Below are positions 13,177-25,689 of a DNA stretch of 32,177 nucleotides, piece after piece. The translations under genes were made by a program, and so were the position numbers. Source of the DNA: an uncultured Bacilli bacterium (lineage in GTDB: Bacteria > Bacillota_I > Bacilli_A > RF39 > UBA660); the NCBI GenBank assembly GCA_944359085.1, contig CALVSQ010000014.1:1-32177 (forward strand), in the 5' to 3' direction. Every line of letters starts with the position of its first letter. Position 1 is the stretch's first letter. The notes beneath the pieces were generated by a model. It was given only the letters and a program-made list of their open reading frames with translations. It did not search any database and was not told the origin of the DNA.

Positions 13177-14574
13177 ATGGCAATGACAAAAAGACCAAAA
13201 AGACAATATTGTAGTGAAATAGTAAATTTAGAAGATATGGTACCACAAGACCATTTCTTAAGAGTAATAGAAAAATATTTTGATTGGAACTTTGTATATG
13301 AAGAAGTAGAAAAATTATATTCAAAAGTTGGACGTAAAAGTATCGATCCAGTAGTTTTAGTGAAAATTCATATACTAAAGTTCCTTTTTCATGAAGATAG
13401 TTTAAGAAGAACCTATGAGAATTTAAAATACAATAATTTATATAGATGGTTTATCGGATATAATTTATGTGAAGAAGTTCCAAATCATTCAACATACTCA
13501 CAAAACTATAAAAGAAAATTTTGTAAACTAGAAAAGGATTTATTACAAACAGTATTTGATAAAGTAATAGAATTATTAATAAATTATAACTGTTTAGATA
13601 TGACAGCGGTATATATAGATTCAACTCATACTAAAGCATCAGCCAATAAAAAGAAAAATCATAAGGAATTAATAAAAATAGAAGCAAAAAAATATCGAAA
13701 AGAATTAGATTTAGAGATAGCTTTAAAAGGATTACATGAGGAAGATTTAACAGAAGAAGAATATTTAGAAGAAGTAGAAAAAATATTAAAATGTAATGAA
13801 GAAGTTGATACAGAAGAAGTTATTGGAGAAAAAGAAGTAATAGTAAGTGATGTAGATAAAGATGCAGGAATGTTGTATAAAAGTGATAAAGAAAAAATGT
13901 TTGGATATAATACAAGTGTTATATGTGAAAACAACAACTATATTCTAACAGTAGATACAAACGGAAGTAATATTCATGATTCAGTTGCTTTTTATGATTC
14001 ATTTAAAAATTTAATTAATCACTTTGATATATCTAATATAAAATATTTTGTAGGAGATGCAGCTTATTTAACAAATCATATATGTAAAATAATAATAGAT
14101 TTAGATATGATACCGGCTTTTCCATATACCAGAAAAGGATATAGAAAAAATTATTTAAAGAAATATGAATTTGTATATGATGAATATAATGATATTTATA
14201 TTTGTCCCAATGAAAAAGATTTAATACCAACAGGAAGAATAGATAAAAATGGATATAAAATATATAAAGCTAATGAACATGATTGTTCAAAATGTCCATT
14301 TAAAAATCAATGTACAAAAAGTAAATCAAAACAAATCTTAAGACATGTTTGGGAGGAATATAAAGAAATGACTAATGATTATAGACATCAGGATGATGTA
14401 AAAGAAGTATATAAGCAAAGGCCACAACATATTGAAAGAATCTTTGCTGATGGAAAAATGAAATATGGACTTAGAAGTACGTACTTTAGGACAAAAGAAA
14501 GGGTTCATCGAGAATTAACCCTTCTTTATGCGTGTATGAATTTGAAAAAGTTTGCATTACACCATTATGCATAG
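13177..14574 (+). CDS. IS1182-family DDE transposase
   Basis: A 465-residue transposase, full length for the family. The N-terminus is a DUF772-type domain (NLEDMVPQDHFLRVIEKYFDW; LVKIHILKFLFHEDSLRRTYEN). Candidate catalytic acids are Asp in YIDSTHTKASANK, Asp in YFVGDAAYL and Glu in HIERIFADGKMKYGL. A Cys cluster (CSKCPFKNQC) precedes the last. A Glu/Lys-rich insertion (~residues 165-225) separates the first motif from the rest. The start follows AAGTAAGTGATTAT. No frameshift, so the element is likely active. Confidence 0.9.
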   Translation: MAMTKRPKRQYCSEIVNLEDMVPQDHFLRVIEKYFDWNFVYEEVEKLYSKVGRKSIDPVVLVKIHILKFLFHEDSLRRTYENLKYNNLYRWFIGYNLCEEVPNHSTYSQNYKRKFCKLEKDLLQTVFDKVIELLINYNCLDMTAVYIDSTHTKASANKKKNHKELIKIEAKKYRKELDLEIALKGLHEEDLTEEEYLEEVEKILKCNEEVDTEEVIGEKEVIVSDVDKDAGMLYKSDKEKMFGYNTSVICENNNYILTVDTNGSNIHDSVAFYDSFKNLINHFDISNIKYFVGDAAYLTNHICKIIIDLDMIPAFPYTRKGYRKNYLKKYEFVYDEYNDIYICPNEKDLIPTGRIDKNGYKIYKANEHDCSKCPFKNQCTKSKSKQILRHVWEEYKEMTNDYRHQDDVKEVYKQRPQHIERIFADGKMKYGLRSTYFRTKERVHRELTLLYACMNLKKFALHHYA

Positions 14575-21582: not shown

Positions 21583-22959
21583 TTACTGCTTTTTATATGT
21601 TATGTTATAACAACTTGGTCCCATAATACAATTACCGTCAATATCAAATCTTGAACCATGACAAGGACAATCCCAAGTTAATTCTACATCATTGAATAAC
21701 AAATTACACTTTAAATGAGGACATTTATTATATACTATATGTTTTTTATTATTTTTATCAATATAAATACCTACATTATCATTATTAATTTTAGTAAATA
21801 TAACATTTTTAGAATTCCATTTTTTATTAGGTATTAATTTATTTTCAATAAGTGTTTTAGAAGTTGATAATAAATTATTAATATTATTTATTCTAAATAT
21901 TAAATTTCTTTTTGGAGAAAATAACCCATATTCTTTATCATATAAAATGATATCACTTAATATTTTACCTGCTATCGTACCATTAGTCATACCCCATGTA
22001 TTATAACCGGTTCCAATTAATAAATTATCTTTTAATTTTCCTATAATAGGTAAATGATCTATAGTTATAATATCGTGATTAGACCAAATATATTCTATAT
22101 CACCATAAATATTGGCTTCTTTAATTAAATTATTAAAATTTATATTTTCATTATACTTATTAGTTATTTTGTGTGAACCATTTAAATAAATTAAATTATC
22201 ATTATAATATCGCATTGATATTGTAGGTATTTTAGACGTTATTGAAGATATTTTTTTGTTTTTAACGTTTTTAACACTACATAAATAAGATCTTTCTAAA
22301 TAACAATGAATTGGAATTAATAATTGAAATAAGAAAAAAGGGTAGTGACAAGCTAAAATAATTTTTTTAGCTTGTATTTTATATTTATCTGTATAAACTA
22401 AATCATGGATTTTAATAACATTTGTCTTTTCATATATTTCAATATTATTTTTTAATAATATTTCTTTTAATTTTAATAAATATTTAATTGGATGAAATAC
22501 ATAAGTATCTTTAACTGAAATAGAATTTTCATTAATATTTACTTTAATATTAAATGATTCTAATAATTTCTTTTCTTTTATTAAATTATCTTTATTTTTA
22601 TCATAAACAAATGATTCTACTTGTTCTAAGTCACATTCAATATTTTCTTTTTCTATTATATCTTTAATGATATTAATAGCTTGTAACTGATATTTTAAAT
22701 AGGGTAGTGCCTTATCTTTTAATTTAGTATATATTAATTCTTGTAAGTAGGTTATTTTAGCAGTTGATTTTGATGTGGCTCCACATCCTATTTGATTTTT
22801 TTCTACTATAACTACTTTTAAGTTTTTATTTATTAAATGATAAGCTGTAGTTAAACCTGTTATCCCACCACCAATTATTAAAACATCACATTCTATATCT
22901 TTGTTTAATTTATTTATTTTGTTTTTATAATCTTTCATCCAAATACTTTGTTTTTTCAT
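21583..22959 (-). CDS. FAD-dependent oxidoreductase with C-terminal Rieske domain
   Basis: A 458-residue protein. The N-terminus is a dinucleotide-binding Rossmann fold (DVLIIGGGITGLTTAYHL), then CGATSKSTAKITYL as in the DAO/glycine-oxidase family. LIGTGYNTWGMTNG is the C-terminal FAD contact. The last ~50 residues form a Rieske [2Fe-2S] domain: Cys413-x-His415 (NKCPHL) and Cys431-x-x-His434 (DCPCHGSRF). Such DAO-Rieske fusions occur in many Bacillota; the substrate is unknown. On the minus strand AGGTGATTGT precedes the ATG. The gene's promoter region lies next to the IS110-type element. Confidence 0.88.
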   Translation of the reverse strand: MKKQSIWMKDYKNKINKLNKDIECDVLIIGGGITGLTTAYHLINKNLKVVIVEKNQIGCGATSKSTAKITYLQELIYTKLKDKALPYLKYQLQAINIIKDIIEKENIECDLEQVESFVYDKNKDNLIKEKKLLESFNIKVNINENSISVKDTYVFHPIKYLLKLKEILLKNNIEIYEKTNVIKIHDLVYTDKYKIQAKKIILACHYPFFLFQLLIPIHCYLERSYLCSVKNVKNKKISSITSKIPTISMRYYNDNLIYLNGSHKITNKYNENINFNNLIKEANIYGDIEYIWSNHDIITIDHLPIIGKLKDNLLIGTGYNTWGMTNGTIAGKILSDIILYDKEYGLFSPKRNLIFRINNINNLLSTSKTLIENKLIPNKKWNSKNVIFTKINNDNVGIYIDKNNKKHIVYNKCPHLKCNLLFNDVELTWDCPCHGSRFDIDGNCIMGPSCYNITYKKQ

Positions 22960-23020
22960 ACAATCACCAATATTAATATGTCCAATATTATTATTTGTAT
23001 GTTATACTTAATACAAGGAT

Positions 23021-23030
23021 ATAGGTGACT
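23021..23030. repeat. Subterminal inverted repeat at the 3' side of the IS110-type element
   Basis: ATAGGTGACT, exactly complementary to 24625-24634. Confidence 0.7.
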
Positions 23031-23099
23031 AACTATTAAAAGTCAATAGGAATTTAAAACTTTTAAAAAAAAGTCACAAAATGGGAAAAAATCCACGAC

Positions 23100-23260
23100 A
23101 AAACACTTCAAAAATATTAAATTTTAAAAATTTTTGAAGTTGCCCAATAATTTATTTATTCCAATTTCCTTTTGACATAATAATTTTATTTATTTAAATA
23201 TATATGTCGTTTTAATTACTAATTTTTCAAAAAATGAAAAATCAGTAATTAAACTCCAAC
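23100..23260 (-). ncRNA. Candidate bridge RNA in the 3' noncoding end
   Basis: Two stable stem-loops lie between the transposase stop and the element end. One has a 17-bp stem with one mismatch (arms 23211-23227 and 23237-23253, 9-base loop). The other is an 11-bp perfect stem (23105-23115 with 23130-23140, 14-base loop). IS1111-group elements are known to encode the target-guiding bridge RNA on this side of the gene. Exact boundaries and guide loops are not resolved; only structure and position support this. Confidence 0.35.
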
Positions 23261-23311
23261 AAGGTAACAAATAAAACTATAAAGTCAAAAGTTTTCTCGG
23301 CATAAAGTAAA

Positions 23312-24475
23312 TTATTTTAGTAAAGATGGATTAAAATCCATATTGTATTTTTCAAGTGAGTAAATAACTCTAATAAGTTTTTTACAAACATGAGATAATG
23401 CAACTCTATGACATTTACCTTCAGAACGTTTCTTAAGGTAATAGTCATAAAAAGTTGGTGAAAATTTTAAGATTGTTAAAGAAATATTCATTAAAGAATA
23501 TCTTAAATGACCGGAGCCATGTTTAACCATTTTACCATTATGAACAATGGTACCTGATTGAATAATACTTGGTTCAAGTCCAGCAAATGCTAACATTTTA
23601 TTAGAAGATGAAAAATTAGAAATATCGCCATATTCAGATAAAATAGTAGCAGCTGAAATTTCACCTAAACCTGGAATAGATAACATTCTAGGATTAAGTT
23701 CTTTGATAATTGTTGAAATTTGTTTATCTATTGGATCAATTTTGTCATTAAAGTTATTAATAATAGAGACATAAGTAGAAATAAGTAAATCAGAATTATT
23801 ATCATGATGACCAACTGAATTTTTAGCAATTTCTTTAAGTTTGGCAAATTTGGCATAAGAAAATTTACCATGAGAAATACTTCTTAAAGAATCAAAATCT
23901 CTCATTAAAGCAATATGTTCAGTGTTTTTATATTTTTCTAAAATATAAAGCAAAGTAGTAGATATACGGTTATTAAAAAATTGCTTTAATTCAGGAAAAG
24001 ACTTGTCTAATTCATTAGTTAAAAGTACTAAAAATTTACTTCTTTCTTTAATTAATAATTCTCTAGCTCTACATAGTGACTTTAATGTATAAATGTGATA
24101 TAATAAATCCGAATTTGGTTTGAAAGGAACAGACATTAAGTAAGTAGCGATAGTTAAACTATCAGCTTTATCAGTCTTAGTTCTACGTAAACTACGAGTT
24201 TTTAAAAACTGATGAATGACAAGAGGATTCATTTTCATAAATGAGAAACCTTGATCAATTAAAAACAGTTCCAAATTCAAAGAATAGTGTCCAGTTGCTT
24301 CAAAGGCAATATGGACTTGGGATTTATTATAGGATTTCAAATAGTCTAATAGATATTGAAATCCTTTTTTGTTATTATCAAAAGAAGCATTTTCAACAAT
24401 TACTTCACCTGTATTTGAGATAATACAGAAATCGTGTTTGTATTTTGATATATCTATACCAATATAGTATGTCAT
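23312..24475 (-). CDS. IS110-family DEDD transposase
   Basis: A 387-residue recombinase starting at ATG 24475, where the minus strand has TTGGAGGTG correctly spaced; the frame extends 20 codons upstream without a site. The N-terminal RuvC-like domain has YYIGIDISK (Asp7), FEATGHYS (Glu) and KTDKADS (Asp pair). The C-terminal transposase_20 domain has LSIPGLGEISAATILSEYGD and AFAGLEPSIIQSG, which carries the serine expected as nucleophile. No lesions, so potentially active. Confidence 0.92.
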   Translation of the reverse strand: MTYYIGIDISKYKHDFCIISNTGEVIVENASFDNNKKGFQYLLDYLKSYNKSQVHIAFEATGHYSLNLELFLIDQGFSFMKMNPLVIHQFLKTRSLRRTKTDKADSLTIATYLMSVPFKPNSDLLYHIYTLKSLCRARELLIKERSKFLVLLTNELDKSFPELKQFFNNRISTTLLYILEKYKNTEHIALMRDFDSLRSISHGKFSYAKFAKLKEIAKNSVGHHDNNSDLLISTYVSIINNFNDKIDPIDKQISTIIKELNPRMLSIPGLGEISAATILSEYGDISNFSSSNKMLAFAGLEPSIIQSGTIVHNGKMVKHGSGHLRYSLMNISLTILKFSPTFYDYYLKKRSEGKCHRVALSHVCKKLIRVIYSLEKYNMDFNPSLLK

Positions 24476-24505
24476 TATAAACACCTCCAAATTAGTTTGT
24501 TTGCA

Positions 24506-24662
24506 CTGTAAGTTTGACACAGAATTTCTAATCATGTAATCACGTAATCTAATAAAACATCGATTAGTTAAAAACTAACGTGTTAACTAACTAATAAACA
24601 ATTAAATTAAAAATCTGTGGTTTGAGTCACCTATTACCAGTCCACAATGTGGCTGTAAGTTT
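24506..24662. repeat. Direct repeat CTGTAAGTTT at the 5' side of the element
   Basis: The 10-mer CTGTAAGTTT occurs at 24506-24515, inside the element upstream of the transposase, and again at 24653-24662, just outside the right subterminal repeat. It could mark the real boundary or be chance. Confidence 0.35.
24625..24634. repeat. Subterminal inverted repeat at the 5' side of the IS110-type element
   Basis: AGTCACCTAT, exact reverse complement of 23021-23030. Confidence 0.7.
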
Positions 24663-24685
24663 ATAGAAACAAATCCACAGTGCGA

Positions 24686-24717
24686 GATATATTATACATC
24701 TAGTAGTATAATATATC
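24686..24717. other. 12-bp perfect palindrome upstream of the esterase operon
   Basis: GATATATTATAC (24686-24697) pairs perfectly with GTATAATATATC (24706-24717), with an 8-base loop. No T tail follows. It may be an operator or a hairpin in the promoter region; the right arm contains a TATAAT -10-like hexamer. Confidence 0.45.
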
Positions 24718-24786
24718 AAAAAATATAATAGAAAGGGATCAATCTAATAGATTAATATTTCTATAAGATTGATTATACGTGAGTAT

Positions 24787-25689
24787 ATGAAAAAAATAAC
24801 AAAAAAAATAATAACTAAGTTATCTAAAATAGATATAGATTATAAAAAAGAAAGAATGTTAAAAGAAATAATTTCAAATGAAAAAAATATAAAATATATA
24901 GATACTTTTATATTAGTTAAAGATCATAATGTAAAAATAAGATTATTTGTTCCTAATGTAGTTAATCAAGTAATTATTTATTTTCATGGTGGTGGATTTG
25001 TTACAGGTAATATTCATACCTATAGTAGAACTTGTTATGATTTAGCTAATAATACTAATTCTTTAGTTATATCAGTTGATTATCGATTAGCGCCTGAATA
25101 TCCTTTTCCTAATGGATTAATTGATTGTTATAACGTTACAAAATACTTATATAGTGAGGATAGTTTTTTAGATAATAAAAATATTGCTATAATGGGTGAT
25201 AGTGCTGGAGGTAATATTGCAAGCGTAGTATCAATTATAGCAAGTGAAAAAAAGGAATTTAAAATAGATAAACAAATTTTATTGTATCCCATGACTTATC
25301 ATATTCATGATGAAAGTTGTAAATTTGATTCTGTAAAACAAAATGGAAATGATTATATTTTAACTAATAAAAGGATTGATAATTATTTAGATTTATATGT
25401 TAAAGATAAAAAATATTTAAAGACTAAATATGTATCACCTTTAAATGCTGATAATTTATATAACCAACCTGATACTTTGATTATTACAGCCAGTTTAGAT
25501 CCATTAAGAGATGAAGGAATTGAATATGGAAACAAATTAATGAAATTTGATAATAAAGTTAAAATGTATCAAATTGATAATATTCATGGCTTTTTTACTA
25601 TACCTATTAACAAAAAAGAAATAATTGAATGTTATAATTATATAAATGATTTTTTGGGAGATGGTTTAATTGAAAAAAAAGTGGTTTAA
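24787..25689 (+). CDS. HSL-family alpha/beta hydrolase (esterase)
   Basis: A 300-residue esterase. HGGG (67-70) forms the oxyanion hole, GDSAGG contains nucleophile Ser139, and Asp238 (SLDPLRDEG) and His267 (NIHGFF) complete the triad; VDYRLAPEYPFPNGL is typical of the hormone-sensitive-lipase/acetyl-esterase family. ATG 24787 is preferred, with GTGAG just upstream; a TTG six codons earlier has no site. It overlaps the next start, so it is the first gene of a three-gene operon. Confidence 0.88.
   Translation: MKKITKKIITKLSKIDIDYKKERMLKEIISNEKNIKYIDTFILVKDHNVKIRLFVPNVVNQVIIYFHGGGFVTGNIHTYSRTCYDLANNTNSLVISVDYRLAPEYPFPNGLIDCYNVTKYLYSEDSFLDNKNIAIMGDSAGGNIASVVSIIASEKKEFKIDKQILLYPMTYHIHDESCKFDSVKQNGNDYILTNKRIDNYLDLYVKDKKYLKTKYVSPLNADNLYNQPDTLIITASLDPLRDEGIEYGNKLMKFDNKVKMYQIDNIHGFFTIPINKKEIIECYNYINDFLGDGLIEKKVV

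What the first reader, a model, noticed from the sequence alone, without database searches (positions are those of the whole stretch)
23021..24634. IS1111-type element with a candidate bridge RNA in its 3' noncoding end
The transposase has the DEDD and serine signatures of IS110 recombinases. The 10-bp subterminal inverted repeats and the longer noncoding side downstream of the gene fit the IS1111 subgroup, whose bridge RNA is encoded on that side. Two strong hairpins occupy this region (17-bp and 11-bp stems). IS110 bridge RNAs are reprogrammable guides, so a new lineage from an unusual host is worth cataloguing.
Basis: partly seen in the sequence, partly recalled or inferred. Interest (0 to 1): 0.52.

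Follow-up and report, generated by a model that had tools for sequence, protein, structure and literature searches.

The report
RNA-guided insertion element at gene starts
This is an RNA-guided jumping gene whose guide RNA sits upstream of its enzyme gene, not downstream as first thought, and which with its relatives lands in the short gap between a gene's ribosome-binding site and its start codon.

Summary
The transposase is real and is an IS110-family RNA-guided recombinase. The element runs from about 23028 to 24781 (minus strand), about 150 bp past the proposed end. Those bp plus the 5' noncoding region form the left end, which holds a complete IS110-type bridge RNA upstream of the gene: 5' hairpin, extra hairpin, target-binding and donor-binding loops. 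Its structure is supported by covariation over 36 relatives. Target guides match each element's own flanks far better than shuffled flanks. Joining right end to left end at the CA/CT core gives a -35/-10 promoter with 17-bp spacing in all 34 elements parsed. Empty sites in related genomes confirm the ends. The '10-bp inverted repeat' is the right target guide matching the right junction. The 17-bp hairpin lies in an unrelated nested 153-bp repeat. The notable part is the target: 49 of 54 insertions have a start codon of an ORF of 60 aa or more 3-12 nt from the core, versus 5% of random positions, and the right guide contains Shine-Dalgarno-like sequence. Two copies in this genome differ at 10 positions, five in the target guides. 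Mechanism known; target class unusual.

The parts
23028..24781 (-). Whole element, one core copy included (core TG on + strand at 23026-23027 and 24780-24781)
   Evidence: Empty sites in relatives; equal core at both ends in 31 of 32 elements; 17-bp junction promoter in 34 of 34 parsed
23312..24475 (-). IS110-family transposase, 387 aa, D8 E59 D102 D105 S307, SD GGAGG at 24484-24488
24500..24773 (-). Predicted bridge RNA in the left end
   Evidence: Fold z -5.6; named structure 86.2% of cells paired versus 30-40% when slid, 18 pairs with two-sided change
24738..24773 (-). 5' stem-loop (ATCAATC...GATTGAT)
   Evidence: Covarying pairs in helices 1-2
24686..24717 (-). Extra hairpin between 5' stem-loop and target loop (GATATATTATAC...GTATAATATATC)
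   Evidence: Helix 3, 6 of 12 pairs with two-sided change; shortened or missing in some subfamilies
24656..24664 (-). Left target guide (ATAAACT + UA at the core position)
   Evidence: Own-flank match 209/330 versus 167 expected, 0 of 5000 permutations
24628..24638 (-).
   Evidence: Own-flank match over positions 1-5 127/150 versus 90.0 expected, 0 of 10000 permutations
24582..24596 (-). Left donor guide (TATTAGTTAGTTAAC), like right-end TTAATAGTTAGTCAC
   Evidence: Sequence and conservation in alignment A1
24540..24549 (-). Right donor guide (GATTACGTGA), complementary to left-end TCACGTA(TA)ATC; switches CGTG/CGAG with core CA/CT
   Evidence: Alignment A1
24678..24683 (-). 5' arm of bridge RNA closing stem GCACTG; 3' arm CAGTGC at 24503-24508
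   Evidence: Helix 4, 95.8% of cells paired, one pair with two-sided change
24771..24779 (-). Left-end tip CGTATAATC with the -10 box of the circle-junction promoter
   Evidence: alignment A1, where the motif was also used to pick rows
23028..23047 (-). Right-end tip TTGACTTTTAATAGTTAGT with the -35 box of the circle-junction promoter
23154..23306 (.). Nested 153-bp palindromic repeat (MITE-like) in the 3' noncoding region; holds the 17-bp hairpin
   Evidence: Found elsewhere without this right end
24787..25689 (+). Target gene: alpha/beta hydrolase, start codon 5 nt from the core

Best explanation
An IS110-group insertion sequence. Shown by sequence: a DEDD/serine recombinase, a bridge RNA encoded in the left end upstream of it, guides that match the flanks and the element's own ends, a shared CA/CT core, and empty sites. 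Inferred from IS621: after excision the right and left ends join at the core and make a promoter (TTGACT-17 bp-TATAAT) that transcribes the bridge RNA and then the transposase. The first loop pairs with the target (left guide to the bottom strand, right guide to the top strand), the second with the donor junction, and the recombinase swaps strands at the core. The right target guide contains a Shine-Dalgarno-like sequence (AGGTG, AGGAG or GGAGA in most elements), so insertions fall between ribosome-binding site and start codon, with the transposase antisense to the gene. The left guide varies and selects among such sites.
For: Family. Left-end conservation up to the core in relatives. Structure covariation. 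Left-guide and right-guide matches to own flanks beyond permutation. Equal cores at both ends, 31 of 32. Junction promoter with 17-bp spacing, 34 of 34 parsed. Empty sites with a single core (e.g. TTTAATAGG-TG-AGAATATG in L238; L241 and L243 alike). Start codon of an ORF of 60 aa or more 3-12 nt from the core in 49 of 54 insertions versus 561 of 10800 random positions. A one-contig genome with a 36%-identical relative shows the same style of site (AGAAAGG-AAAAA...ATG), start codon 8-13 nt away in 6 of 10 copies.
Against: No RNA or transposition data. RNAalifold on the mixed alignment found only the target-loop stems, 11 pairs, 1 with two-sided change; the fuller structure was named by me from one sequence. 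The permutations ignore relatedness. Left-guide matches are imperfect (209 of 330) and flanks are AT-rich. The window's own left and right flanks are not the original pair; the hydrolase's original left neighbour is on another contig.
Confidence: 0.93

Rival explanations
1. IS1111-type element ending at 24634, bridge RNA in the 3' end, 10-bp subterminal inverted repeats.
For: Inverted match present; 3' noncoding region of about 284 bp folds strongly.
Against: The left 'end' continues about 150 bp with conserved covarying structure; empty sites place the end at 24780; most of the 3' fold is a nested repeat found elsewhere; target and donor guides all lie upstream.
Confidence: 0.03
2. The 150 bp beyond 24634 is a separate dispersed repeat that the element uses as a target.
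For: The two full copies in this genome differ at 9 positions in 24634-24724 but at 1 elsewhere.
Against: In the own genome the repeat is found only next to the element or at broken contig ends (4 strong matches); the region is continuous with the 5' noncoding region in the aligned relatives; empty sites lack it; the -10 box at its far tip completes a 17-bp-spaced promoter.
Confidence: 0.03
3. The guide/flank agreement is base composition or shared ancestry, not pairing.
For: AT-rich genomes; most flanks contain CAT near the core; elements are related.
Against: Shuffling flanks among elements with the same core never reached the observed match (0 of 5000; 0 of 10000); the signal peaks at one register.
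Confidence: 0.05

Closest known systems
IS621 (IS110 group, E. coli), bridge RNA system
   Same: DEDD plus serine recombinase; left-end RNA with 5' hairpin, target loop then donor loop; left guide 5' of right guide; core in the guides; right-end/left-end promoter; gapped pairing of right donor guide with left end (PMC11208160, PMC11208158, passages read)
   Different: About 275 nt predicted RNA instead of 177; extra hairpin and a long-range closing stem; target is the gap between Shine-Dalgarno and start codon, not REP-type repeats (IS621 target recalled, not checked here)
ISEc21 (IS110 group)
   Same: Upstream noncoding region gives the guide; circle junction makes a promoter; target matches ordered bottom strand then top strand (PMC11187229, passages read)
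   Different: ISEc21 targets a conserved stretch inside IS3-family transposase genes; this lineage targets many host gene starts
ISEc11 / ISXne4 (IS1111 group)
   Same: Natural re-targeting between relatives through changed guides (PMC11187229, passages read)
   Different: Guide RNA downstream of the gene, long subterminal repeats; here upstream and no long subterminal repeat at the true ends

Membership tests
IS110 group | DEDD RuvC-like domain plus Tnp domain with catalytic serine | tested here: met
IS110 group | Bridge RNA in the left end, upstream of the gene | tested here: met
   Guides and covarying stems in 24500-24781; expression not measured
IS110 group | Left target guide (bottom strand) 5' of right target guide (top strand) | tested here: met
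IS110 group | Core dinucleotide shared by both junctions, no longer duplication | tested here: met
   31 of 32; empty sites
IS110 group | Promoter across the joined right and left ends | tested here: met
   34 of 34 parsed with 17-bp spacing; sequence only
IS110 group | Short 2-3 bp subterminal repeat (ATA/TAT) | tested here: met
   Right end AATAGTTAG, left end CGTATAATC; by inspection
IS110 group | RNA bound by the recombinase and required for transposition | not testable with these tools
   Needs experiment
IS1111 group | Guide RNA in the right end, downstream of the gene | tested here: not met
   Guides lie upstream; the 3' region holds a nested repeat
IS1111 group | Subterminal inverted repeats of 7-17 bp at the two ends | tested here: not met
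   The 9-10 bp match pairs the right junction with the internal right target guide, not with the left end
IS1111 group | Transposase clusters with IS1111 transposases | not tested
   No tree built; the two PDB hits at E up to 1e-5 are IS621 and ISCro4

The most novel reading that the evidence does not exclude
A lineage of bridge-RNA elements, with left-end matches in 144 of 386 sampled genomes of one host family (some weak), has fixed its right target guide on the Shine-Dalgarno sequence, a motif that recurs before many genes, and lets the left guide drift to pick among gene starts. Near-identical copies in one genome already carry different guides. The left end may also carry a replacement ribosome-binding site (AGAAAGG on the gene strand, as CCTTTC in 33 of 36 left ends) plus a hairpin that brings it near the start codon, so the gene it lands in front of stays expressed.
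Probability: 0.3. Interest if true: 0.65.

Novelty: new member of a known kind. Interest (0 to 1): 0.45.

Why it matters
It corrects the anatomy of a candidate RNA-guided recombinase and gives a large natural set of guides with matched targets. If gene-start homing holds, it shows how a programmable element can use a motif that occurs before many genes while limiting damage to coding sequence, and it gives material for testing how bridge RNA guides change in nature.

Tried and rejected
Rejected: bridge RNA in the 3' end, the 150 bp as a separate target repeat, and rewriting of the guide after insertion. On the last: G123 and G143 each have two copies with one and the same left guide at different flanks, and the copies of one type in G083 share guides, so ordinary guide-directed insertion plus guide mutation suffices.

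Led nowhere: no Rfam match in the window at gathering thresholds. Viral contigs: 5 pattern matches, none a relative. RNAalifold on the 36-row alignment recovered 11 pairs only. Paper searches (open PMC subset) listed no paper that I recognised as describing an IS110 element aimed at Shine-Dalgarno sites; only passages of PMC11187229, PMC11208160 and PMC11208158 were read, other hits only as listings.

Selections made: of 61 parsed elements, five rows were dropped (reverse-strand hit in L093, a spurious second start in L198, L201, L204, L131), leaving 56. L109 has no flank, so 55 entered. L083 and L109 were dropped from the start-codon count for short flanks, leaving 54. The 36 rows of A1 were picked by me from the 56 for length and diversity. 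Right-guide rows: 30 with a usable right end. misread two of them (L200, L202); one search repeats the count. Junction spacing: 34 of the 56 had a right end that the pattern could read. Elements were found by motif (GTATAATC, GTGGATTTG), so conservation of those motifs is partly by selection.

Full report
WHAT IS THERE. The window is contig C14 of an AT-rich, fragmented genome (1.13 Mb, 59 contigs, 68% complete). The ORF at 23312-24535 on the minus strand encodes an IS110-family transposase. Its D8, E59, D102, D105 and S307 (numbering from the ATG at 24475) align with the catalytic DEDD and serine residues of IS621 (residues named in PMC11208158).

BOUNDARIES. A second copy, contig C53, is identical over the proposed element except for one base, but its right flank stays about 93% like the window's beyond position 24634, up to about 24785. 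In relatives from the genome collection (31 loci) the same region is conserved from the transposase start out to CGTATAATC. Beyond that the flanks are unrelated. The two junctions carry the same dinucleotide, CA or CT, in 31 of 32 elements. If right and left ends are joined at that core, TTGACx and TATAAT stand 17 bp apart in 34 of 34 elements that could be parsed, as expected for the circle promoter of IS110 elements (PMC11208160, passages). Empty sites: in G008, G003 and G002 the gene left of contig C39's element copy is followed by the hydrolase that lies right of the window's element, with one core (L238: GATATAATTTAATAGG-TG-AGAATATG; in L238 the shared gene itself aligns about 1.1 kb further on, in L241 and L243 directly). 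So the element spans 23028-24781.

BRIDGE RNA. The left end folds into a 5' hairpin, an extra hairpin, a target loop and a donor part closed by GCACTG/CAGTGC (z -5.6). On 36 aligned left ends the named structure pairs 86.2% of cells against 30-40% when slid by 1-3 columns. Its covariation score is 0.138 against 0.020-0.048, with 18 of 49 pairs changed on both sides; the count of further pair types does not exceed shuffles (37 versus 37.6). An unbiased RNAalifold run recovered only 11 pairs, so the outer helices rest on the named model. Left-guide letters match the own left flank at 209 of 330 positions against 167 expected when flanks are exchanged among elements with the same core; none of 5000 permutations reached it, and the register scan peaks at zero offset. 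Right-guide positions 1-5 match at 127 of 150 against 90.0 expected, none of 10000 permutations. Donor guides are visible as TTAGTTAGT (right end) and TTACGTGA/TTACGAGA (left end), the latter switching with the core.

The 10-bp 'inverted repeat' pairs the right junction with the right target guide inside the RNA. The 17-bp hairpin lies in a 153-bp palindromic repeat (23154-23306). That repeat sits in the 3' region of three IS110 lineages (window, L087, L186) but elsewhere lies without the right end: of the 20 loci fetched, L249, L254 and L255 have the right-end tail (L254 and L255 are the same places as L087 and L186), and L251 has a distantly related transposase nearby without that tail. The other hairpin is the terminator-like stem after the gene, present in different sequence in relatives.

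TARGET. In 49 of 54 insertions a start codon of an ORF of at least 60 aa stands 3-12 nt from the core on the opposite strand; 561 of 10800 random positions do so. Most rejoined sites read AGG-TG, AGG-AG or GGAGA-TG followed by 5-9 nt and ATG, a ribosome-binding site. A distant relative (about 36% identity) in a one-contig genome, G083, inserts at AGAAAGG-AAAAA sites, with a start codon 8-13 nt from the core in 6 of 10 copies. REP repeats (PMC1525189, listing only), attC sites and IS3 codons (PMC11187229, passages) are the targets I met in print; four searches listed none of this type.

GUIDE CHANGE. Window and C53 differ at 10 positions. Nine lie in 24634-24724, five of them in the two target guides, and one lies elsewhere. 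Each left guide fits its own flank better than the other's: window 6 of 7 against 4 of 7, C53 7 of 7 against 3 of 7, counted by hand. In G123 and G143, two copies each share one left guide. Natural re-targeting is already described between relatives (PMC11187229), so this is a close-range example, not a new principle. That both copies come from one strain cannot be shown with this assembly.

CAVEAT ON THE WINDOW. The window's left flank is followed in G009 and G014 by another gene (TATAGGTGAGTTTATGAAAATATTG, G009; G014 alike with one extra base), and the hydrolase's original left neighbour is on contig C39. The two halves of the window were therefore joined through the element, by recombination between copies or by misassembly. 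The left-end evidence is not affected, because guides and left flank lie within about 150 bp; right-flank matches in multi-copy genomes may be.

VERDICT. An IS110-group member by every defining feature that could be tested. Not IS1111.

Noticed in passing
window 22780-23025 and 24782-25029: The two flanks are not neighbours in relatives: the left flank precedes another gene in G009 and G014, and the hydrolase follows the contig C39 gene in G002 and G003 (and its upstream sequence in G008). The window was joined through the repeated element (recombination or misassembly).
   Followed up: yes
window 23154-23306: 153-bp palindromic repeat (TTTATGCCGAGAAAACTTTTGAC...AAGGAAATTGGAATAAAT) scattered in the host family; flanks often look like the two arms of a hairpin, as if it inserts into hairpin loops.
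   Followed up: partly
window about 24730-24737 (CCTTTC, gene strand AGAAAGG): CCTTTC after the 5' hairpin in 33 of 36 left ends (0.48 expected in shuffles). It could be a replacement ribosome-binding site for the downstream gene, or an anti-Shine-Dalgarno that hides the transposase's own site.
   Followed up: partly
L191 (G402:C12) and L205 (G432:C11): Short derivatives: left end and target loop joined directly to right-end/target sequence, without the rest of the left end. Possible non-autonomous guide-only elements.
   Followed up: no
left flanks C39, C40, C27, C13 in G000: A TATAAT-like box lies about 4-5 nt before the TAGGTG target site in four contigs, so the hit genes appear to have very short 5' untranslated regions.
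   Followed up: no
window 13177-14574 (+): Intact IS1182-family transposase (NF033551, 343 bits).
   Followed up: no
window 21583-22959 (-): FAD-dependent oxidoreductase with a C-terminal Rieske domain.
   Followed up: no
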